From NCBI RefSeq assembly GCF_002269385.1, contig NZ_CP022957.1, positions 4,207,001-4,271,000 of the forward strand: DNA of 64,000 nt, given 5' to 3'. The position numbers and the translations under genes were made by a program. The stretch comes from Maribacter cobaltidurans. GTDB lineage: Bacteria; Bacteroidota; Bacteroidia; Flavobacteriales; Flavobacteriaceae. The notes under the pieces were generated by a model. It had not been told where the DNA came from, searched no databases, and saw nothing but the letters and a program-made list of their open reading frames with translations. Positions 36,949 to 46,003 of the stretch are shown one piece after another (positions within the stretch are counted from its first letter, which is position 1; every line of letters begins with the position of its first letter).

Positions 36949-37671
36949 TTAGTTGCGTTGCCGTACCTTGGAATCCCCGGTAAGGTGTTGGTGTACCACA
37001 GTCGCATTGCCCTGGTAGTTTAGAACGCTGTCGCCACTGGCTTCCACATCGATCGTTCCGCTTACGGAAAGGGACGCTTGGCTATCCCCGGTAAGGTCAA
37101 TGATAAGGTCTGCCACCTGCAGGTCATAGTCCCTAAACGTACTATCACCGCTTAAACGGGCATTGACGTTTTCGGCATACCCAAACAGATCTGCTGTGGA
37201 ATCGCCGCGAAGGTCCACCCGTAGTCGGTCAACATCCATTTCACCGGTAAAATGGCTATCCCCATAAACCGTAATGGAAGCATTATCGGCTAGGATAAGA
37301 TCTTCCACATCCACAGAGGAGTCCCCATAAACTTCAAAATCGGTAATGTTCCTTGTGGTAATATACGCCCTTAGGGTAGGATTTCCCCGTAGGATAACCT
37401 TATTTTCCAGACCGATCTTCAAGGTATTGCCGCTCTTGAACACGTCAATTTTTCTATGTAGGTTATCGTTGGCCGTTATGGCTATGTTTTCCTCGGTTTC
37501 GGAAAAGCGAACGTACACCTCAAAATCGCCCGATATTTCCAATCTTTGGTAATCGGAAAAGGCATATTCTACCGTGGTTACTTCGTCCAATGCGGTAATG
37601 ACCTGATGGTCACAGGAACTAAACAGGATGCTTGCGGCCATACAAAGGCCCATGATAATTTTTGTTTTCAT
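36949..37671 (-). CDS. DUF2807 (GIN-domain) putative auto-transporter adhesin, lipoprotein
   Basis: A 240-residue exported protein: the signal peptide ends in a lipobox (ILFSSC), giving a lipid Cys near residue 19. The mature part is a DUF2807/GIN head domain: EYAFSDYQRLEISGDFEVYV then a regular beta-helix in which the phrase 'GDS' recurs about every 20 residues (YGDSSVDVEDL, YGDSHFTGEMDV, RGDSTADLFGY, SGDSTFRDYDL, TGDSQASLSVS, SGDSVLNYQG). Proteins of this type sit on the cell surface or periplasm; role unknown. It ends the ECF-linked block, 127 bases after the small ORF. Confidence 0.88.
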   Translation of the reverse strand: MKTKIIMGLCMAASILFSSCDHQVITALDEVTTVEYAFSDYQRLEISGDFEVYVRFSETEENIAITANDNLHRKIDVFKSGNTLKIGLENKVILRGNPTLRAYITTRNITDFEVYGDSSVDVEDLILADNASITVYGDSHFTGEMDVDRLRVDLRGDSTADLFGYAENVNARLSGDSTFRDYDLQVADLIIDLTGDSQASLSVSGTIDVEASGDSVLNYQGNATVVHQHLTGDSKVRQRN

Positions 37672-37797: not shown

Positions 37798-37938
37798 CTA
37801 TGCCGATTGTACGGGCAACCAACGGAACGGAACGGGTGACCATTCTTGGTCTTTGTTCAACGTATAGACTTGGTTGTTCTGCGTAAACACCCGTACCGTG
37901 GCAATGGTTTCAGGCGTTGACGGATGTTCCTTTTCCAT
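37798..37938 (-). CDS. Small hypothetical protein (46 aa), translationally coupled
   Basis: An ATG overlapping the stop of the outer-membrane protein gene (TAATG at 37936-37940) opens a 46-codon frame: MEKEHPSTPETIATVRVFTQ then NNQVYTLNKDQEWSPVPFRW and LPVQSA. The amino-acid composition is normal for a real protein, and the stop/start overlap is typical of coupled genes. No signal peptide or membrane helix. It could be a small partner of the outer-membrane protein. Not recognised; support is context only. Confidence 0.5.
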   Translation of the reverse strand: MEKEHPSTPETIATVRVFTQNNQVYTLNKDQEWSPVPFRWLPVQSA

Positions 37939-38603
37939 TAGTCCAGTTTTTTCTTGTACCGGTTGCGCCCCATATTAAAAACGCCCAGTTTTACGCCAAT
38001 TCCTCCGGAGAAACCATTGATCCTGTCCAGGGGACTGTCCGCCAATTCGATTTCACTGGAGAATCTATATCGTACCCCGGCTTCCAACTGTACATATCTG
38101 GAAATATTAAAGAGAACGTTCATCCCCGGTTCCAGTATAAAGACGGCATCCAAATCGTCTTCGTTCAAATCCACATCCTCCTCATGTACAATGTCGTCAT
38201 GGTTTACATAACCTACGGCCCCGCCGCCAATAAGTACGGGAAAAGAAAGGCTTACCTTGGATTTTCCAAAAAGAATGGGCTCTAAATGTAGGCCGCCATA
38301 AACGGCAATGATATCATCATTACTGCTGTTTCTGGGGTTGAATACATCCTGTTCAGAGTAAAGGACGTTGGCCATAAAACCCACCTCAAACTGTCTGTTG
38401 GCGACGTAGGCGACCTTTAGTCCGCCTATGTAGGTGTCCTTGTCGTCAATTTCGCCAAAATAGGTGGAAAGGCCTAGATATACGCCATGTACCACGTTTT
38501 TTCGATCATTAAAGGTGATGTATTCCTCGTCCTGATTCTGGGAAAATCCAAGGATACCGAATAAAAGAAAGAGTAGGAGTGCTGTTGTTTTTTGATTGTT
38601 CAT
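37938..38603 (-). CDS. Outer-membrane beta-barrel-like protein of the ECF regulon
   Basis: About 221 residues from the ATG at 38603, which opens a clear signal peptide (MNNQKTTALLLFLLFGILGF then SQ). The frame is open to 38639, but a promoter at 38632-38660 starts transcription inside that stretch, so 38603 is the start. The mature part alternates polar and hydrophobic residues with Gly-rich turns (VHGVYLGLSTYFGEIDD, QLEAGVRYRFSSEIELAD, GFSGGIGVKLGVFNMG), as in small 8-stranded barrels. The last strand ends just before a basic tail. It is preceded by its own ECF-type promoter. Confidence 0.75.
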   Translation of the reverse strand: MNNQKTTALLLFLLFGILGFSQNQDEEYITFNDRKNVVHGVYLGLSTYFGEIDDKDTYIGGLKVAYVANRQFEVGFMANVLYSEQDVFNPRNSSNDDIIAVYGGLHLEPILFGKSKVSLSFPVLIGGGAVGYVNHDDIVHEEDVDLNEDDLDAVFILEPGMNVLFNISRYVQLEAGVRYRFSSEIELADSPLDRINGFSGGIGVKLGVFNMGRNRYKKKLD

Positions 38604-38631: not shown

Positions 38632-38660
38632 AAAGACAATTGTTAATTAAAAGGGTTGCA
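38632..38660 (-). promoter_or_regulatory. ECF-type promoter before the outer-membrane protein gene
   Basis: On the minus strand TGCAACCC (38653-38660), a 13-base spacer and TTGTCTTT (38632-38639). The same elements with the same spacing stand before the ECF sigma gene (40855-40883) and, on the plus strand, before the TonB receptor (40919-40947). The predicted start of transcription is about 20 bases before the ATG at 38603. Confidence 0.72.
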
Positions 38661-38675
38661 TGGAACAAGACTTTT

Positions 38676-39764
38676 TTAATCGTTAATTGTTACAATTCCC
38701 TTACTACCGCTAATGGAAATGTGTCCGGTTTTGGAGTCTCCGTAGGTGGCTTCGATTTTTCTGAGTTTTTTTCCATTATCGAGCATATCAGATCGCACGT
38801 TTTCAAAACTTTTGGGAAGCCTTACCACGCCCTGCTCCAGGGTGGCATCGAACCGATGAGAAAACTCACCGACATTCAGGGTAATGTCCGATGATTCCTG
38901 TTCAATGATAATTTGGGCATCGGGTTGCCCAATACCGTAGATCACAAAATCGGCAATTTTTAAGTCGAGCCCCACATCGTCCATAAGTTTTTGCAACTTA
39001 AAGGTGGAAAATTTTAAACTCCCAAAAACGGAACCGACCTCGTTAATGGCAATCTCGTCCTTATTCGAGTCCAATTCCAAAGCATTGGCCTTACCGATTT
39101 TTATTTCGCTTCCTTCGGTGGTCAGGCGTAAATTTTTGGCTTCGTCCATGGTCAATTCCCCATTCTCCAACATAATAGTCGCATAGTCCAGGTTTTTGGC
39201 CCTGATTTTTCCAAAGGTCAGTTTAATATCCGCCTTGTTCAGGCCATCGTTCAACCATAGGTCACCATGCTCCAAAACCACGTGGAGCGGCCCGATCCAA
39301 TCCTCGATAAAAATGTCCCCGAACCTGTTGGTGATATCCAGTTTGGCTTTATTGGGCAAAAACACTTCATAGTCTATTTGCACACGGCTTCGGTCCGTAT
39401 CAATGGGATTGGCCTTGTTAAAGAAATCTGCGAACCAGCCAGAATTTCGGTTGGCGATGACGGAAACCACAGATATAAAACTACTGTTGGACTTTATTTC
39501 GGGGCGAATACGGTCCAACAACTCTTTCGCGTCTTCCCGCTTTCTGTGGTTCACCTTTACGTCCATGACCACTTTTACCTTGTTCTGGTCCCAACCGGTC
39601 AAGGTAATATTACCGTATTTGTTCTCCAATTGGAGTTCGCCGTTCTCCGATAACGAAAAACTTTTTTCAACGGTCTTGGATACCCTCTCCTGTGCCATGC
39701 CCACCATAGTGAGCAGCATTAGGGCCGTCCATAGGAAGCTTTTATAATGTGTATCCGTATTCAT
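38676..39764 (-). CDS. DUF4097-like putative adhesin / beta-helix protein
   Basis: About 362 residues from the ATG at 39764, chosen because a signal peptide (FLWTALMLLTMVGMAQ) follows it directly. The mature protein begins ERVSKTVEKSFSLSENGELQ then NKYGNITLTGWDQNKVKV, the DUF4097 pattern (a short beta-helix of 'G-x-I-x-V' repeats), continuing with FGDIFIEDW and ENGELTMDEAKNL. It is exported; similar proteins are found with ECF sigma / anti-sigma pairs in Bacteroidota. The start overlaps the upstream anti-sigma-like gene by 23 bases. Confidence 0.8.
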   Translation of the reverse strand: MNTDTHYKSFLWTALMLLTMVGMAQERVSKTVEKSFSLSENGELQLENKYGNITLTGWDQNKVKVVMDVKVNHRKREDAKELLDRIRPEIKSNSSFISVVSVIANRNSGWFADFFNKANPIDTDRSRVQIDYEVFLPNKAKLDITNRFGDIFIEDWIGPLHVVLEHGDLWLNDGLNKADIKLTFGKIRAKNLDYATIMLENGELTMDEAKNLRLTTEGSEIKIGKANALELDSNKDEIAINEVGSVFGSLKFSTFKLQKLMDDVGLDLKIADFVIYGIGQPDAQIIIEQESSDITLNVGEFSHRFDATLEQGVVRLPKSFENVRSDMLDNGKKLRKIEATYGDSKTGHISISGSKGIVTIND

Positions 39765-40281
39765 GGTTCGTTTTTTTAGATTCGTTAATCTGATGTAATA
39801 AGTTCTCAATGAGCTCAATACGTGTTTTATAGTTGGCCACGATGGCCGCTAGCACTTGCTCATTGTCCAGGTTGTTGTGCATTTCCTTGCGCAGTACCTC
39901 ATATTCTGCGTCCAGTTCGTCCATAAAGGATAAAAATTCCGTTTTATCGGCTTCGCTTAAATATTGGTTCTTACGGACCAATTCCACTTGGTAGGCAACC
40001 AAATCCTGATAGTGCATATCTATTTCAAGCAATTCCTTGGACACATATTGTTCCTGCGGGTTATTCGTGTTGAAATATGCCAAACCAAAAATGGTGGCCA
40101 GTCCTATAATCAATGTCACACTTGCCGCAACATGAAACATAGGGCGTTTCCAAAGGGGAATGACCTTTGGGGTATCTTTTTCCAGTTCTGCCGATATGTG
40201 TGCCCATAACTTGGCCTTGTCCGCAGTGTGTTCATCGAAGGCACCGGCATTTTCCCTAATATGTTTTTCAAAATTGTCCAT
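39742..40281 (-). CDS. Putative anti-sigma factor (single membrane helix)
   Basis: A 179-residue protein: cytoplasmic N-terminus (MDNFEKHIRENAGAFDEHTA then DKAKLWAHISAEL) of about 48 residues, one membrane helix at about 50-70 (FHVAASVTLIIGLATIFGLAY), and a C-terminal helical, acidic coiled-coil domain outside. Its position right behind the ECF sigma gene, touching it at one base (40281), and this layout are typical of anti-sigma factors, though no zinc motif is seen. It probably holds the sigma factor at the membrane and senses the periplasm. Confidence 0.72.
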   Translation of the reverse strand: MDNFEKHIRENAGAFDEHTADKAKLWAHISAELEKDTPKVIPLWKRPMFHVAASVTLIIGLATIFGLAYFNTNNPQEQYVSKELLEIDMHYQDLVAYQVELVRKNQYLSEADKTEFLSFMDELDAEYEVLRKEMHNNLDNEQVLAAIVANYKTRIELIENLLHQINESKKTNHEYGYTL

Positions 40282-40823
40282 TACAATTCCTTTACGATTT
40301 CCAATAATTTTCTTTTGGCTCTGTGGTATTGTGATTTTGAGGTACTGGTGGTAATGTCCAGTATTTCTGCAATCTCCACATGGTCATATCCTTCAACTAG
40401 ATACAGGTTGATAATTTGCTTATATCCGTCGGGCAATTGTGCAATGCCCTGTTTTACCTTTTTAATGTCCACCGCTTCGTTCTCCATCGTTTCTTCTTCC
40501 TGTGATAAGTGAAAGGCGTGTTGTTCCATCGGTACTAGGTCAATCCGCTTTGCCTTTAGATGGTTGATGCTTTTATTGATTACGATGCGCTTTAACCAGG
40601 CACCAAAACTGCTTTCATATTTAAAGCGTTCTAAATTTCTAAAGGCATCCACAAAACTGTCCTGCACAATATCCTCGGCATCTTCCTTATTTCCCAAAAA
40701 CCGAAGCCCCACATTATACATGGCATCCACGTAAAGGCTATAGAGTTCGTACTGAGAACTGCTATGCCCCGCTTTGGAACGTTCCACTAGGGATTGATGT
40801 GTAAATCGAATATCGGTTTCCAC
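40281..40823 (-). CDS. ECF RNA polymerase sigma factor
   Basis: About 180 residues from the GTG at 40823. Region 2 is clear (YVDAMYNVGLRFLGNKEDAE then DIVQDSFVDAFRNLERFK, GAWLKRIVINKSINHL) and so is region 4 (QLPDGYKQIINLYLVEGYDH then VEIAEILDITTSTSKSQYHRAK). The frame is open up to 40928, but an ECF promoter at 40855-40883 places the RNA start near 40848, which rules out the upstream ATG; the GTG is the first good start downstream. It is probably autoregulated and drives the neighbouring barrel and TonB genes. Confidence 0.9.
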   Translation of the reverse strand: METDIRFTHQSLVERSKAGHSSSQYELYSLYVDAMYNVGLRFLGNKEDAEDIVQDSFVDAFRNLERFKYESSFGAWLKRIVINKSINHLKAKRIDLVPMEQHAFHLSQEEETMENEAVDIKKVKQGIAQLPDGYKQIINLYLVEGYDHVEIAEILDITTSTSKSQYHRAKRKLLEIVKEL

Positions 40824-40854
40824 GTAATTAGGTTGATGCCGTATGGTTGAATTA

Positions 40855-40883
40855 AAAGACAAAGGAAAAAAGAAAGGGTTGCA
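40855..40883 (-). promoter_or_regulatory. ECF-type autoregulatory promoter of the sigma gene
   Basis: Minus strand: TGCAACCC (40876-40883), 13-base spacer, TTGTCTTT (40855-40862). Same elements and spacing as at 38632-38660 and 40919-40947. GGGTTGCAC here and GTGCAACCC at 40918-40926 form a 9-bp inverted repeat because the two divergent promoters face away from each other. Confidence 0.72.
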
Positions 40884-40918
40884 CTTGGGACAAAAAAAAT
40901 TAAAAAAAAGGTAAAGGG

Positions 40919-40947
40919 TGCAACCCATTTGTTTTCATACTGTCTAT
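40919..40947 (+). promoter_or_regulatory. ECF-type promoter of the TonB receptor gene
   Basis: Plus strand: TGCAACCC (40919-40926), 13-base spacer, CTGTCTAT (40940-40947), 45 bases before the ATG at 40993. Third copy of the promoter design, divergent from that of the sigma gene. Confidence 0.7.
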
Positions 40948-40992: not shown

Positions 40993-43398
40993 ATGAACAG
41001 ACAATTAAATGGAATCTCGGCCGTCTGGAGGAAAATGGGGGTGTTCTGGATACTCCTCATGGGTTCCTTCCTAACGATGGGACAGACATCCCATACCATA
41101 AGCGGTACCATTACCGACCATGCCAACGGCGAAACCCTTTTTGGGGCTTCGGTGTTTTTATCAGGCACCAGCATAGGCGGCATTACGAATGAATATGGAT
41201 TTTATTCCATTACGGCTCCCGAGGGCGACTATGTACTTCATATTTCCTACATGGGTTATACCGATATCAATCTAAACATCCATTTGAATCAAGACCTTAA
41301 GCAGGATATTGAAATTTCCGAGTTTGCCACCGAGCTTAACGAAGTGGATGTTATTGCAGAGGAACCCGAAAAGGCCCTTCTCAGAAAACCGGAAATGAGC
41401 GTTCTTAAAATGAACGTGGGCACAGTGAAACAAATTCCCGTGGTCCTCGGCGAAGTGGATGTGCTAAAGTCACTTCAGATGTTGCCTGGGGTGACCAATA
41501 ACGGCGAAGGCTCTGGAGGCTTCCATGTGCGTGGCGGGGCCCAGGACCAGAATTTGGTCTTATTGGACGAGGCCATTATCTACAATACCTCACATATGTT
41601 CGGTTTCTTTTCCGTGTTCAATGCCGATGCCATAAAAGATTTAAAACTTTACAAAGGAGGCATTCCAGCACGATTTGGGGGCAGGGTTTCCTCCGTGTTG
41701 GATATTCGCCAAAAAGATGGCAACAGCAAGAAATTTGCGCTTACGGGCGGCATAGGTGCCATTTCCAGTAGGCTCACTGCAGAAGGCCCCATGTTTGGCA
41801 ACAAGGGTTCTTTTTTGGTCGCGGGCAGGCGTTCGTATATCGACTTATTTTTAAAGGCTGCAGGAGAGGAGAATAGTGCCATGTTCTACGACCTTAACCT
41901 AAAGACCAACTATAGCATCAATGCCAACAACCGACTCTTTTTAAGCGGGTATTTTGGTCGGGATAGTTTTGAACTGGGACAATCTTTTACCAGCAGTTAT
42001 GGGAATGCATCAGGCAATCTACGGTGGAACCATATTTTTAATGACCGACTCTTCTCCAATCTTTCCGCCATCGTGAGTCGGTATGATTATGACCTGAATC
42101 TCGATTTTGAAAAGTTTGAATGGATTTCGTCCATCAACAACTACAACCTCAAATATGATTTTAAATATTATTTGAACGATGTCTTCACCCTTGATTTTGG
42201 GGCAAGCGGTCTCTTTTATGAGTTTGACCCCGGACAAATCCGACCAACTTCGGAAACCTCTTCAATTAACCCACTGTCCTTAGATCAAAAAAGGGCCTTT
42301 GAAAGTGGCCTGTACATAAACGCCGAACATAAATTGACCGATAGGCTTACGGCCCAATATGGTCTGCGATACAGTGCCTTTAGCCGATTGGGAGGCCAAC
42401 CTATATCCAATTATGAAAACGACCTACCCGTGGTTTACAACTCCCGTTTGGGAATCTATGAGCGGGGAAGGGTCATGGGGGAGACCCAATATTCAAAAAG
42501 TGAGTCCATTAAAAGTTTCAACAATTTGGAACCTAGGGTTTCCTTGGCCTATTTACTTAATGAAAATACATCCGTAAAGGCCGGGTTTTCCCGTGCCGCG
42601 CAGTATATCCATTTATTGTCCAACACCTCTTCCGTGACCCCGTTGGATGTTTGGACGCCTAGCGGACCTTTTATCAAACCACAATTATCCAATCAATATG
42701 CCTTGGGCTATTTTCAGGATTTTAAGGATAAAAAGTACTCCTTGGAAGTGGAGGGGTATTACAAGACCGTGGATAATAGGATCGATTACATCGATGGGTC
42801 CGAGCTTATCGGACAAAACACCATTGAGACCGAAATATTAAATGGTGAAATGCGGGCCTACGGTTTGGAATTGCTGTTTCGCAAGAACGAAGGGAAATTG
42901 ACAGGTTGGGTCGCCTATACCCTTTCCAAATCGGAACAACGAACGCCGGGAGGTTCTGCCGGTGGGCCGGGAATAAACAATGGGGATTGGTACAATACTT
43001 TTTTTGACCGCACACACGATATTTCGATTACAGGTACCTATGCCTTCAACGATCAATGGAGCGTAGGGGGTAATATGGTCTTTCAAACGGGAAGACCGGT
43101 GACCTATCCCAATGGACAATACGAATATGAGGGGATGTCCATTGCCAGCTACTCGGCAAGAAATTCGGACCGCTTGCCCGCGTACCATCGCATGGATGCA
43201 TCCCTGACCTACAGACCAAAAAAATATGAAACCAAACGCTTTAAGGGGGAATGGGTCCTGAGCGTGTATAACCTATATCACCGTAAGAATGCGGCTTCCA
43301 TATCCTTTGCCCAAAACTTTGAAACCGGGGCGAACGAAGCAACCCGAACTGCCATTTTTGGCATTTTACCCTCAATTACGTACAATTTTAAATTTTGA
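40993..43398 (+). CDS. TonB-dependent receptor with N-terminal carboxypeptidase-like domain
   Basis: An 801-residue outer-membrane receptor. A signal peptide (about 1-33) is followed by a carboxypeptidase-D-like domain (SGTITDHANGETLFGASVFL, about 34-115) and then the plug (PVVLGEVDVLKSLQMLPGVT, GGFHVRGGAQDQNLVLLDEA) and a 22-strand barrel, ending in Phe (SITYNFKF). It takes up an unknown large nutrient with TonB energy. It is followed by a DUF4249 lipoprotein, the usual partner in Bacteroidota, and lies behind an ECF-type promoter. No susC-type partner (susD) is present. Pathway not determined. Confidence 0.9.
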   Translation: MNRQLNGISAVWRKMGVFWILLMGSFLTMGQTSHTISGTITDHANGETLFGASVFLSGTSIGGITNEYGFYSITAPEGDYVLHISYMGYTDINLNIHLNQDLKQDIEISEFATELNEVDVIAEEPEKALLRKPEMSVLKMNVGTVKQIPVVLGEVDVLKSLQMLPGVTNNGEGSGGFHVRGGAQDQNLVLLDEAIIYNTSHMFGFFSVFNADAIKDLKLYKGGIPARFGGRVSSVLDIRQKDGNSKKFALTGGIGAISSRLTAEGPMFGNKGSFLVAGRRSYIDLFLKAAGEENSAMFYDLNLKTNYSINANNRLFLSGYFGRDSFELGQSFTSSYGNASGNLRWNHIFNDRLFSNLSAIVSRYDYDLNLDFEKFEWISSINNYNLKYDFKYYLNDVFTLDFGASGLFYEFDPGQIRPTSETSSINPLSLDQKRAFESGLYINAEHKLTDRLTAQYGLRYSAFSRLGGQPISNYENDLPVVYNSRLGIYERGRVMGETQYSKSESIKSFNNLEPRVSLAYLLNENTSVKAGFSRAAQYIHLLSNTSSVTPLDVWTPSGPFIKPQLSNQYALGYFQDFKDKKYSLEVEGYYKTVDNRIDYIDGSELIGQNTIETEILNGEMRAYGLELLFRKNEGKLTGWVAYTLSKSEQRTPGGSAGGPGINNGDWYNTFFDRTHDISITGTYAFNDQWSVGGNMVFQTGRPVTYPNGQYEYEGMSIASYSARNSDRLPAYHRMDASLTYRPKKYETKRFKGEWVLSVYNLYHRKNAASISFAQNFETGANEATRTAIFGILPSITYNFKF

Positions 43399-43400
43399 TC

Positions 43401-44249
43401 ATGAAAACATTGATAAAACTATATATACCACTAATACTATTCTTATTGGTGTCGTGCCAAGATGTAATTGACGTCGAGTTACAGAGCGGTCCCGAACGAT
43501 TGGTCGTGGAAGCTTCTTTGGACTGGGAGAAAGGAACTACGGGAAACCGGCAGACCATTCGTTTGACAAAGTCTTCCACCTATTTTAAGACCAATTCCGT
43601 TGAAGAGGTCCAAGGAGCGATGGTTACCGTAACCAACACAAATACAGGCGATTCCTTCAATTTTGTGGACCAGAATAATGGTAATTACGTTACCACGAAT
43701 TTTCAACCCATTATTGGTAATTCCTATGCCTTGCGGATTGAATATGGTGGACAGGTTTATTCGGCCTCAGAAACCATGACTTCCGTGGCGGAGATTACGG
43801 ATATTTTCCAGACACGTGACGACGGTTTTAGTGATACCGATTTGGAAGTGCACATAAGCTTCACCGATCCTATTGAAGAAGGGAACAATTATCTTTTTAA
43901 GTTTCAAAAACAGGGCGACCTGTTACCCCTTTTTGAAAATGCCGAGGATGAATTTGTAAACGGTAACGAAATAGATTGGTGGTTTGAAATTGAAGAAGAT
44001 GAAGTGGACGGGTTGGAACCCTTTCAGCCGGGTGATGTTGTATCTATTGAAATGTATGGCATATCCAGGGCTTACTACGATTACATTAAGATTCTTATTG
44101 ATCAAATGGATGGGGCAGGTTTATTTTCTTCAACTCCCGTACCTGTACGTGGTAATTGTATCAATGAAACCAACCCAGAGGACTATGCCTATGGTTATTT
44201 TCGGTTGACGGAAGTTAACCGTGCTACCTATACCTTTACGGAAGATTAA
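43401..44249 (+). CDS. DUF4249 domain lipoprotein (TonB receptor partner)
   Basis: A 282-residue lipoprotein with a lipobox (FLLVSCQDVID, lipid Cys near residue 19). The mature part follows the DUF4249 pattern: LVVEASLDWEKGTTG, an Ig-like beta domain, and ETMTSVAEI. It begins 2 bases after the TonB receptor stop and probably forms a surface lid for it, as for other receptor/DUF4249 pairs. The ATG at 43401 is preferred to a TTG at 43395, which overlaps the receptor stop. Confidence 0.88.
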   Translation: MKTLIKLYIPLILFLLVSCQDVIDVELQSGPERLVVEASLDWEKGTTGNRQTIRLTKSSTYFKTNSVEEVQGAMVTVTNTNTGDSFNFVDQNNGNYVTTNFQPIIGNSYALRIEYGGQVYSASETMTSVAEITDIFQTRDDGFSDTDLEVHISFTDPIEEGNNYLFKFQKQGDLLPLFENAEDEFVNGNEIDWWFEIEEDEVDGLEPFQPGDVVSIEMYGISRAYYDYIKILIDQMDGAGLFSSTPVPVRGNCINETNPEDYAYGYFRLTEVNRATYTFTED

Positions 44250-44445: not shown

Positions 44446-44817
44446 TTAACTGGCCAACTTTTGTTGTATAACTTTTATTTTTTCAGAAGTTAGGGGTTTT
44501 TCCAAATAAGCTATGACAGAGGGGTAACTTTCAGCTCTTTCCCTATCTTCATTACGGTTGGAAGACGTGAGCATTGCAATTTTTGCGCCCTGGCAAAGTG
44601 ACCTGGATTCTTTTTCTTGTAAGAATTCCCACCCGTCCATAATGGGCATATTTATGTCTAGAAAAATCAGATCTGGGCAATCCTTTTCAAGAAAATGGAA
44701 GGCATCCAGGCCATTCAGTACTTCATGTACCTCTTCCAGTCCTTCTTTCCTCAATGCTATTTTATGTATGAAGTTAGTGGTCTCATCATCTTCAATTAAT
44801 AGTACTTTACTATTCAT
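44446..44817 (-). CDS. Single-domain response regulator
   Basis: A 123-residue receiver domain without output: acidic residues in LLIEDDETTN, phospho-acceptor in LIFLDINMPIMDG, Thr/Ser in AMLTSSNRN and Lys in LEKPLTSEK. The start overlaps the stop of the kinase gene by 8 bases, so the two are coupled and form a pair. Because it has no DNA-binding domain, it acts by protein contact or as a phosphate relay. Confidence 0.92.
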   Translation of the reverse strand: MNSKVLLIEDDETTNFIHKIALRKEGLEEVHEVLNGLDAFHFLEKDCPDLIFLDINMPIMDGWEFLQEKESRSLCQGAKIAMLTSSNRNEDRERAESYPSVIAYLEKPLTSEKIKVIQQKLAS

Positions 44818-46003
44818 GTATGTTGGTTTTAAAATGGATACGGAATAAGGCCCCTAGACCCGGCTTGCTCTCTACTTCAATCTTACCATCATGTGAATCT
44901 ACGATGGATTTAACGATATACATTCCCACACCCATACCATTTATACCGGTGTGCAATCGCCTAAAGAGTCCAAATATTTTTTCTTTGTACTTGGCAGAAT
45001 CAAACCCGATGCCATTATCCTTTACACTTAATATTACATTACCTTTCTCTTTGGTAGTTTTCACTTCGAGAATCAAGGGTTTGTTGGGGTCTTTGTACTT
45101 GACGGCATTGGTTAGCAGGTTTTGCATAATACTTTTTAAATGCAAGCTTGGATAGTCAATTTCAGGAGCTTCTGAAAAATCCTCGGATATCGTGGCATTG
45201 GCTTCATCCAGCTGTTGTGCTATACTTTCCTTAAGTTCAACAAAAATTTGAGCAAAATTTAAACGTTCGTTCTTATAAGCGAGGGTTGCCTTAAAATTAA
45301 TGATATCATTTAAGGCGTTTACCTTTTTTGACAGAATTTCTACATTCTTTCGCAACTTGCCAAACACTTCTCTATCGTATTCGTCAGTTATAGCATCCAC
45401 ACTTATCATGTTTGATAAAGTAACGATATTGGTCACAGGTGCCTTTAAATCATGGGCGGACACATAGGAAAAATCGGCCAGTTCCTTATTCTTGGATTCA
45501 ATTTCTTTGGTATACCGTTTTACTTGGGCCATCTGTGTCAACAAGGCTTGATTGGTTTCCTTTAGTTTACGTTCCGCCAGTTTACGCGGTGTAATATCCT
45601 TTATAAAGACATGCACCAGAGGTTGTCCATCCAAAATGTATTTACAGGGTGTCGCTTCCGCCTTAAAAACCGAACCATCCTTTCTCTTAAAACTGGTTTC
45701 AACACTTAGTTTGGTCACGTGTTTTATTTTCTCCAAAACCTCTCCAGAATGGTCGATTTCATCTTCGGTATGCAAATCAAGAACACTTTTTTCCAAGAGT
45801 TCTTTATGGGAATATCCGAACATTTCAACGGCACTATCATTTGCGTTTAGAATGTTCATTTCAATATCGTGCACGAGGATGGGAATTACAGCGTATTTGA
45901 ATATTTGTTGATAAATATCCCCGTGGCTGTAAAGCTGTTTAAAGTCATTTAGAGGATTGTCCACACTTGGTGTAGGGGCCATCGTTTTTTTCTCTTTCTC
46001 CAT
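44810..46003 (-). CDS. PAS-domain sensor histidine kinase
   Basis: A 397-residue soluble kinase without membrane helices. Residues about 30-150 are a PAS domain (KYAVIPILVHDIEMNILNAN, FKRKDGSVFKAEATPCKY). A coiled coil leads to HisKA (DFSYVSAHDLKAPVTNIVT, phospho-His about 187) and HATPase (MQNLLTNAVKYKDP, VKDNGIGFDSA, GMGVGMYIVKSIVDSHDG). It senses a cytoplasmic signal through PAS and passes phosphate to the coupled response regulator. Confidence 0.92.
   Translation of the reverse strand: MEKEKKTMAPTPSVDNPLNDFKQLYSHGDIYQQIFKYAVIPILVHDIEMNILNANDSAVEMFGYSHKELLEKSVLDLHTEDEIDHSGEVLEKIKHVTKLSVETSFKRKDGSVFKAEATPCKYILDGQPLVHVFIKDITPRKLAERKLKETNQALLTQMAQVKRYTKEIESKNKELADFSYVSAHDLKAPVTNIVTLSNMISVDAITDEYDREVFGKLRKNVEILSKKVNALNDIINFKATLAYKNERLNFAQIFVELKESIAQQLDEANATISEDFSEAPEIDYPSLHLKSIMQNLLTNAVKYKDPNKPLILEVKTTKEKGNVILSVKDNGIGFDSAKYKEKIFGLFRRLHTGINGMGVGMYIVKSIVDSHDGKIEVESKPGLGALFRIHFKTNIHE

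What the first reader, a model, noticed from the sequence alone, without database searches (positions are those of the whole stretch)
38632..40947. Three ECF promoters of identical design define a self-contained regulon
TGCAACCC, exactly 13 bases, then yTGTCTwT occurs at 40855-40883 (-, sigma gene), 40919-40947 (+, TonB receptor) and 38632-38660 (-, barrel protein). No other copy with the -10 part was found in the window. This pins down the start codons of two genes (GTG 40823 and ATG 38603) and suggests that the sigma factor drives itself, an outer-membrane barrel and a TonB receptor with its DUF4249 lipoprotein. The block also holds a putative anti-sigma and two beta-helix surface proteins.
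Basis: partly seen in the sequence, partly recalled or inferred. Interest (0 to 1): 0.75.

Follow-up and report, generated by a model that had tools for sequence, protein, structure and literature searches.

The report
Self-driven sigma factor with three-promoter regulon
A marine bacterium carries a small genetic switch, a sigma factor that very probably recognises one unusual promoter found only before its own operon, an outer-membrane protein gene and a nutrient-receptor gene, and the same switch is conserved in many related bacteria even in some where the receptor gene lies elsewhere in the genome.

Summary
TGCAACCC-N13-YTGTCTWT occurs exactly three times in the window; the shorter TGCAACCC-N13-YTGTCT occurs nowhere else in the 4.64 Mb genome. 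Comparative genomics supports the regulon. The site stands before the sigma gene in 79 of 80 named relatives (the 80th has one mismatch) and in 19 of 19 family genomes, own genome included, with the anti-sigma orthologue. It stands before the best-matching TonB receptor in 16 of 19, five with the receptor far off or on another contig. It is missing from 10 receptor paralogues and 28 fetched loci of other anti-sigma genes; one unfetched, more distant pair (G077) has it. Only spacer 13 is clearly enriched. The design (TGCAAC-N16-TGTC) fits ECF promoters. GTG 40823 is supported; sigma starts with TTG or GTG in 80 of 80 relatives, anti-sigma with ATG in 80 of 80: a possible translational brake. 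Not shown: transcription, signal, substrate, or the claimed beta-helix surface proteins. A new, well-defined member of a known kind; moderate interest.

The parts
40855..40883 (-). ECF promoter of the sigma operon (TGCAAC-N16-TGTC)
   Evidence: same core before the sigma gene in 79 of 80 named relatives and in 19 of 19 family genomes with the orthologue, own genome included
40919..40947 (+). ECF promoter of the TonB receptor / DUF4249 unit
   Evidence: before the best-matching receptor in 16 of 19 genomes (own included), five with the receptor about 1 Mb away or on another contig
38632..38660 (-). ECF promoter of the barrel gene
   Evidence: before the barrel in 16 of 19 genomes (own included), the other three having the barrel 17-46 bases behind the preceding gene; 63 of 77 in the named set
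40281..40823 (-). ECF sigma factor, GTG start
   Evidence: Sigma70_r2 8.2e-16, Sigma70_r4_2 1.5e-13; non-ATG start conserved
39742..40281 (-). putative membrane anti-sigma factor: about 47-residue N-terminal part, one membrane helix (by eye), helical C-terminal domain
   Evidence: overlaps the sigma stop; conserved in synteny; model with helices 52-69, 75-103, 110-136, 141-173; no Pfam family
38676..39764 (-). 362-aa protein with a signal-like N-terminus (by eye), fold unknown, third gene of the sigma operon
   Evidence: overlaps the anti-sigma gene; found in 18 of 18 family loci and 80 of 80 named loci; best family match E 0.025
37938..38603 (-). 221-aa putative outer-membrane barrel protein, ATG 38603
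   Evidence: conserved in the block; no Pfam or PDB sequence match; weak PorQ match E 0.044; no structure predicted
40993..43398 (+). TonB-dependent receptor with CarboxypepD_reg-like domain
   Evidence: PF00593 1e-26, PF13715 1.9e-18, PF07715 6.6e-8
43401..44249 (+). DUF4249 protein (lipoprotein signal by eye), partner gene of the receptor
   Evidence: PF14054 1e-24; follows the receptor in the 8 family loci where both lie in the fetched stretch
36949..37671 (-). DUF2807 protein; membership in the regulon uncertain
   Evidence: PF10988 8.5e-35; found behind the barrel in 11 of 18 family loci; no own site

Best explanation
This is an autoregulated ECF sigma / membrane anti-sigma switch of Flavobacteriaceae with its own promoter language, TGCAACCy-N13-yTGTCTw. 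At rest the anti-sigma holds the sigma factor at the inner membrane. An envelope signal frees it, and the sigma factor then transcribes (1) its own operon, which makes more anti-sigma and so limits the response, (2) an outer-membrane barrel gene, and (3) a TonB receptor with its DUF4249 partner. Shown by sequence: the sites, their uniqueness, and their conservation with the sigma factor across genomes. Inferred: that this sigma factor reads them, release by an envelope signal, and what is imported. The sigma gene is translated from a conserved weak start codon (UUG/GUG) while the overlapping anti-sigma has AUG; I infer that this keeps anti-sigma in excess.
For: Three sites only, genome-wide. 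Strict-pattern co-occurrence with the orthologue: 15 of 19 genomes with it, 3 of 130 without (Fisher p about 2e-14). Sigma site in 79 of 80, plus one with 1 mismatch; 192 of 203 core sites in 967 kb lie at the three genes, reversed control 4. Receptor site kept when unlinked. Receptor paralogues 0 of 10; fetched loci of other anti-sigma genes 0 of 28 at regulon strength. Spacer test: N13 30 hits, N14 5, the other 15 lengths together 9, control 10. Non-ATG sigma start 80 of 80, anti-sigma ATG 80 of 80.
Against: No transcript or binding data. In 3 of 19 genomes the best-matching receptor lacks the site, and 14 of 77 barrels and 12 of 62 receptors in the named set lack an exact core within 400 bases; many of these sit behind another gene of the block on the same strand, so an own promoter may not be needed, but that is my reading. 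The strict pattern also occurs in 3 of 130 genomes without the orthologue, once (G077) before a more distant sigma/anti-sigma pair, so the site is not limited to the close orthologues. The anti-sigma label rests on position, one membrane helix and synteny, not on a family match.
Confidence: 0.88

Rival explanations
1. The sites are ECF promoters, but are read by a different or by several ECF sigma factors of the cell (overlapping regulons), and the local sigma factor is only one of them.
For: The genome has 28 matches to the ECF sigma model. Three other ECF loci of this genome have TG[CT]AAC-N16/17-CGTC upstream, so -35 elements are shared. A more distant sigma gene in G077 has the same site. 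Overlap of ECF regulons is discussed for F. psychrophilum (PMC9723704, passages).
Against: Sites track one sigma/anti-sigma clade: 15 of 19 genomes against 3 of 130, and 28 fetched loci of other anti-sigma genes have no site of regulon strength. The -10 differs (TGTC against CGTC).
Confidence: 0.1
2. The repeated element is the operator of a DNA-binding regulator, not a sigma promoter.
For: A two-part site of fixed spacing could be an operator; a receiver gene and a histidine kinase gene at 44446-46003 lie near by.
Against: The two parts are not inverted repeats of each other; they stand 26-59 bases before the sigma start codon in 78 of 79 sites with an exact core; TGCAAC-N16-TGTC has the layout of ECF promoters (recalled: sigma-W TGAAAC-N16-CGTA); the receiver protein shows a receiver domain only.
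Confidence: 0.02
3. Similarity of the sites is shared descent of a duplicated upstream region without present function.
For: Two of the three sites have only 35 bases between them in one divergent intergenic region.
Against: The spacer letters vary while both boxes stay, across genera; the receptor has the site where it lies apart; other genes carry it in some relatives.
Confidence: 0.01

Closest known systems
Autoregulated ECF sigma / membrane anti-sigma systems (recalled: Bacillus sigma-W/RsiW, E. coli RpoE/RseA)
   Same: sigma gene overlapped by a membrane anti-sigma gene; promoter with AAC in the -35 and 16 bases to the -10; own operon among the targets
   Different: -10 is TGTC, not CGTA/CGTC; tiny regulon of three units; targets are a TonB receptor, DUF4249 and a barrel; the part before the membrane helix is only about 47 residues and has no cysteine, hence no Hx3Cx2C
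SM6 promoters of Flavobacterium psychrophilum (PMC9723704; passages seen)
   Same: ECF-type promoters in the same family, including one before an ECF/anti-sigma pair
   Different: SM6 has a CGT box at -10 and precedes several type IX secretion genes; here TGTC and a receptor/barrel set
Das/Dma systems of Bacteroides, ECF21 (PMC13088901; passages seen)
   Same: Bacteroidota ECF sigma with an adjacent anti-sigma, a third operon gene of unknown function (Dma2), and an outer-membrane barrel involved
   Different: in Dma the barrel is the C-terminal domain of the anti-sigma itself; here it is a separate protein with its own promoter. ECF21 membership of this sigma factor was not tested
Streptomyces SigR/RsrA (PMC5472188; abstract and passages seen)
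   Same: sigma gene with a weak start codon, overlapping anti-sigma gene with ATG
   Different: SigR uses GTC and is repressed by IF3; there TTG and GTG gave excess SigR. Here TTG/GTG, in a phylum that lacks Shine-Dalgarno sites (PMC6847099, passages)
FecI/FecR-type control of TonB receptors (PMC9249621 seen in search listing only; details recalled)
   Same: ECF sigma next to a TonB receptor
   Different: sigma scores below the cut-off of the Bacteroidetes model TIGR02985 (93.7 against 126.4 bits), which I take as the FecI-like one from memory; the anti-sigma of the window has no FecR match

Membership tests
ECF sigma factor | sigma region 2 and region 4 only, about 180 residues | tested here: met
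   PF04542 and PF08281 over cut-off; TIGR02937 92.2 bits over cut-off 42.9
ECF promoter | two conserved boxes with fixed spacing, close to the start of the gene | tested here: met
   N13 in 30 of 44 hits over spacers 6-22, control 10 in all; 26-59 bases before the sigma start codon in 78 of 79
ECF promoter | transcription starts a few bases behind the -10, dependent on the sigma factor | not testable with these tools
   no transcript data held
Class I anti-sigma factor (ASDI) | N-terminal domain of four helices, in about half of them with Hx3Cx2C (PMC7406223, passages) | tested here: inconclusive
   only two helices (2-16, 22-34) precede the membrane helix in the model, at low confidence; no Hx3Cx2C in the sequence; no Pfam match
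FecI/FecR system | FecR domain in the anti-sigma; Bacteroidetes FecI-like sigma subfamily | tested here: not met
Dma dual membrane-spanning anti-sigma | one chain with anti-sigma part, membrane helix, long tether and C-terminal barrel | tested here: not met
   anti-sigma is 179 residues and helical in the model, no barrel; the putative barrel is a separate gene
Translationally throttled sigma (SigR type) | conserved weak start codon that lowers sigma relative to anti-sigma | tested here: inconclusive
   conserved TTG/GTG 80 of 80 against ATG 80 of 80; effect on protein amounts not testable; non-ATG starts are common in ECF genes here (31 of 75)

The most novel reading that the evidence does not exclude
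A conserved ECF regulon of Flavobacteriaceae in which the receptor, barrel and secreted protein it makes also form the outer-membrane sensing arm that frees the sigma factor (a Dma-like system split into separate proteins), with the sigma:anti-sigma ratio fixed by a conserved UUG/GUG start codon on sigma against AUG on anti-sigma.
Probability: 0.2. Interest if true: 0.65.

Novelty: new member of a known kind. Interest (0 to 1): 0.45.

Why it matters
Few ECF promoter sequences are named for Bacteroidota in the papers seen here: the 2020 B. thetaiotaomicron TSS paper says a motif was known for EcfO of B. fragilis but for no B. thetaiotaomicron ECF (PMC7366714, passages); the F. psychrophilum map gives SM6 and a 2025 paper a potential SigW-1 motif (PMC12596196, passages). 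Here a sigma factor, its promoter and a three-unit regulon are matched by sequence across many genera, so the pair can be tested directly and might serve as an orthogonal promoter. It also ties an unexplained receptor/DUF4249 pair to an envelope-type switch, and points to a weak sigma start codon that is conserved across genera.

Tried and rejected
Other regulon members in this genome: the 2-mismatch search gave 16 hits against 16 control hits, so none is claimed. The two copies of the 146-aa protein in this genome have no site (best scores -1.5 and 6.3).

Idea that weak sigma starts go with a membrane anti-sigma neighbour: a first count in this genome looked positive (7 of 12 against 2 of 13, p 0.04; counted by hand, also taking neighbours with four membrane helices). 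A scripted count over 75 ECF-size matches of three genomes (neighbour with one or two membrane helices) did not bear it out: 13 of 29 against 18 of 45 with a callable start, p 0.81, one gene without a candidate start. Left out of that count: 3, 2 and 1 longer sigma matches of G000, G032 and G021, and 5 of the 34 ECF-size matches of G021, which had no locus. So the claim is limited to this subfamily. In 27 paralogous pairs I read 23 with TTG/GTG at the same place and no ATG near by; there the anti-sigma ATG is by construction of my script.

Idea that the anti-sigma's outer domain has a CnrX/CpxP-like fold (from memory): model of moderate confidence (mean pLDDT 71), best PDB match E 0.42, no sequence match of meaning (best E 0.03). 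A first model was poor (mean pLDDT 57). Not claimed.

Named ECF group: the reclassification paper was not held and the papers found were not about this group; not assigned. Searches for prior reports: 'TGCAAC' + ECF + sigma factor + Bacteroid (0 papers), DUF4249 + TonB + sigma factor (0 papers), ECF sigma + Flavobacteri + regulon + anti-sigma + promoter (3 papers), Zobellia galactanivorans + sigma factor + TonB + anti-sigma (3 papers), and wider ones. These cover open PMC papers only; motifs printed in figures alone would be missed.
Full report
OBSERVATION. The pattern TGCAACCC-N13-YTGTCTWT is at 38632-38660 (-), 40855-40883 (-) and 40919-40947 (+) and nowhere else in the window; 0 of 100 shuffles gave a match. 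In the whole genome (one contig, 4,639,957 bases) TGCAACCC-N13-YTGTCT occurs three times, all here, and the control (pattern read backwards) not at all. With two mismatches allowed there are 16 hits and 16 control hits. So the three sites are real and, at this stringency, nothing else stands out.

ANATOMY. On the minus strand: sigma gene 40823-40281 (ECF), overlapping anti-sigma gene 40281-39742, overlapping 362-aa protein 39764-38676, then behind the third site the barrel gene 38603-37938, then DUF2807 at 37671-36949. On the plus strand the receptor 40993-43398 and DUF4249 about 43401-44249.

DOES THE SITE BELONG TO THIS SIGMA FACTOR? The anti-sigma sequence has clear orthologues (E below 1e-35) in 19 of 149 genomes drawn from the family (own genome included), then a gap to about 1e-11. 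All 19 loci have TGCAAC-N16-TGTC before the sigma gene; of 11 fetched loci with distant anti-sigma genes none has it at this spacing (one match with N17). Scanning the same 149 genomes for TGCAACCY-N13-YTGTCTW gave hits in 18: 15 of the 19 with the orthologue and 3 of the 130 without (Fisher p about 2e-14); the control pattern hit 3 of 149. The four missed genomes have sites that break the strict pattern by one or two letters. Of the 30 hits in the 15 genomes, 28 lie at the sigma, barrel or receptor gene, one before a second receptor family (G018), and one inside a gene (G001). Of the three other genomes, G077 has its site before a more distant sigma gene (45% identical) followed by an anti-sigma-like gene, G119's lies inside a gene, and G087 has two copies before a repeated 163-aa gene.

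SEPARATED GENES KEEP THE SITE. The best-matching receptor has the site in 16 of 19 genomes (15 with N13; G090 with N14); G021, G104 and G143 do not. In G017, G018, G019, G108 and G145 the receptor is on another contig or about 1 Mb from the sigma gene, in G032 about 19 kb away, and the site is there. Ten receptor paralogues of 55-63% identity have none. The units are arranged divergently, in tandem or apart. The barrel has the site in 16 of 19; in the other three it starts 17-46 bases behind the preceding gene.

NAMED RELATIVES. One scan of genome contigs gave 80 loci (the best 80 of 485) from genera including Maribacter, Allomuricauda, Flagellimonas, Zobellia, Croceivirga, Aquimarina, Arenibacter, Kriegella and Saonia; the closest are a metagenome bin and Maribacter sp. 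PR1 (99 and 98% sigma identity). The core site precedes the sigma gene in 79 of 80, and L148 has it with one mismatch; the barrel in 63 of 77; the receptor in 50 of 62. Of 203 core sites in 967 kb 192 are at these three genes; the reversed control has 4. The misses were looked at: two barrels have a one-letter variant (L198, L206); L201 has two barrels with the site before the first; 9 of the 14 barrel misses and 10 of the 12 receptor misses are Aquimarina loci in which the gene follows the sigma operon on the same strand; L197 and L199 have a site about 650 bases before the receptor, beyond my 400-base limit. The ten core letters are fixed by my search expression; the informative facts are the hit rate, the variable spacer and the constant length. 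Four further orthologues from an order-level search (395 genomes) also have it, and 28 fetched loci of other anti-sigma genes (two of them the same gene, so 27 distinct) have none of regulon strength: best 13.6 bits, against 15.3 for the weakest of the 192 sites. These 28 are part of more than a hundred distant matches; the G077 pair named above was not among them and does have the site.

SPACER TEST. With the spacer free from 6 to 22 in the 19 genomes: 30 hits at 13, 5 at 14 and 9 over the other 15 lengths; control 10 in all. Three of the five N14 hits are at regulon-type genes: the G090 receptor and the 146-aa protein in G086 and G001.

EXTRA MEMBERS IN RELATIVES. A 146-aa protein with a signal-like N-terminus, downstream of DUF4249, carries a site in L140 and L148 (N13) and in G086 (N14), and an unlinked copy in G001 carries one with N14; G011 and G032 have variants with the first letter changed. 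The two copies in the window's genome carry none. A second TonB receptor family has the site in G018 (L254), and in G143 a receptor that looks like it (by eye, not aligned) is the next gene behind the barrel on the same strand.

PROMOTER CLASS. TGCAAC-N16-TGTC has the layout of ECF promoters (recalled consensus TGAAAC-N16-CGTA of B. subtilis sigma-W). It is not the TAnnTTTG box of the primary sigma factor of Bacteroidota (PMC7366714, passages). It differs from SM6 of F. psychrophilum, which has a CGT box at -10 (PMC9723704, passages), and from TG[CT]AAC-N16/17-CGTC seen before three other ECF genes of this genome.

START CODONS. GTG 40823 lies between the site and the body of the protein; the ATG at 40928 that opens the frame lies upstream of the promoter. 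In the 80 named loci the same position is TTG in 77 and GTG in 3; 79 of the 80 have no in-frame ATG within 20 codons, one has; the anti-sigma starts with ATG in 80 of 80. In the 18 other family genomes the start reads TTG in 13, GTG in 3, CTG in 1 and ATG in 1 (G104). ATG 38603 for the barrel agrees with the relatives (46 of 77 align from residue 1 with ATG, all 77 have an ATG near by). The Streptomyces sigR precedent shows that a weak sigma start can hold sigma below anti-sigma (PMC5472188, abstract and passages); there the codon is GTC, and TTG or GTG relieved the brake, so the parallel is only suggestive. Non-ATG starts are frequent in ECF genes of three genomes generally (31 of 75), and a link to having a membrane anti-sigma neighbour was not supported (p 0.81).

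MECHANISM. Most likely: a membrane anti-sigma with a helical outer domain holds the sigma factor; an envelope cue frees it; the sigma factor transcribes its own operon, the barrel, and the receptor/DUF4249 unit. Shown: sites, uniqueness, conservation, gene content. Inferred: recognition, release, signal, cargo. The outer domain model (block means of pLDDT 77-92 over residues 81-170) has no PDB relative of note.

VERDICT. Confirmed and extended; a new, unusually clean member of a known kind. No paper was found that describes it in the searches named under Tried and rejected, which cover open PMC papers only.

Noticed in passing
ECF loci L264-L288, L291-L311, L313-L341: 31 of 75 ECF sigma genes in three genomes have only TTG/GTG start candidates; paralogous sigma/anti-sigma pairs have TTG/GTG at a conserved place without an ATG near by in 23 of 27. 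Why ECF genes here so often avoid ATG is unexplained.
   Followed up: partly
L265, L267, L281 (window's genome): Other ECF genes of the same genome have TG[CT]AAC-N16/17-CGTC upstream: likely promoters of other ECF sigma factors with CGTC instead of TGTC.
   Followed up: no
L140:1934-2374, L148:2003-2455, L209, L219: A 146-aa protein without a convincing Pfam or NCBIfam match, found in 19 of 20 genomes searched, has joined the regulon in some species.
   Followed up: partly
L254:2972-5302 and L094:3083-5413: A second TonB receptor family apparently recruited to the regulon in two genomes, once by its own site (G018) and once by position behind the barrel (G143); likeness of the two judged by eye.
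   Followed up: partly
G087 (L054, L070): Two identical copies of the strict motif 11 bases before a repeated 163-aa gene in a genome without the sigma orthologue; possibly a duplicated element.
   Followed up: no
window 44446-46003: PAS histidine kinase gene overlapping a single-domain receiver gene, beside the DUF4249 gene; no link to the regulon tested.
   Followed up: no
G000:C1:2761074-2763431 (L119): A 63% identical receptor paralogue in the same genome without the site.
   Followed up: no
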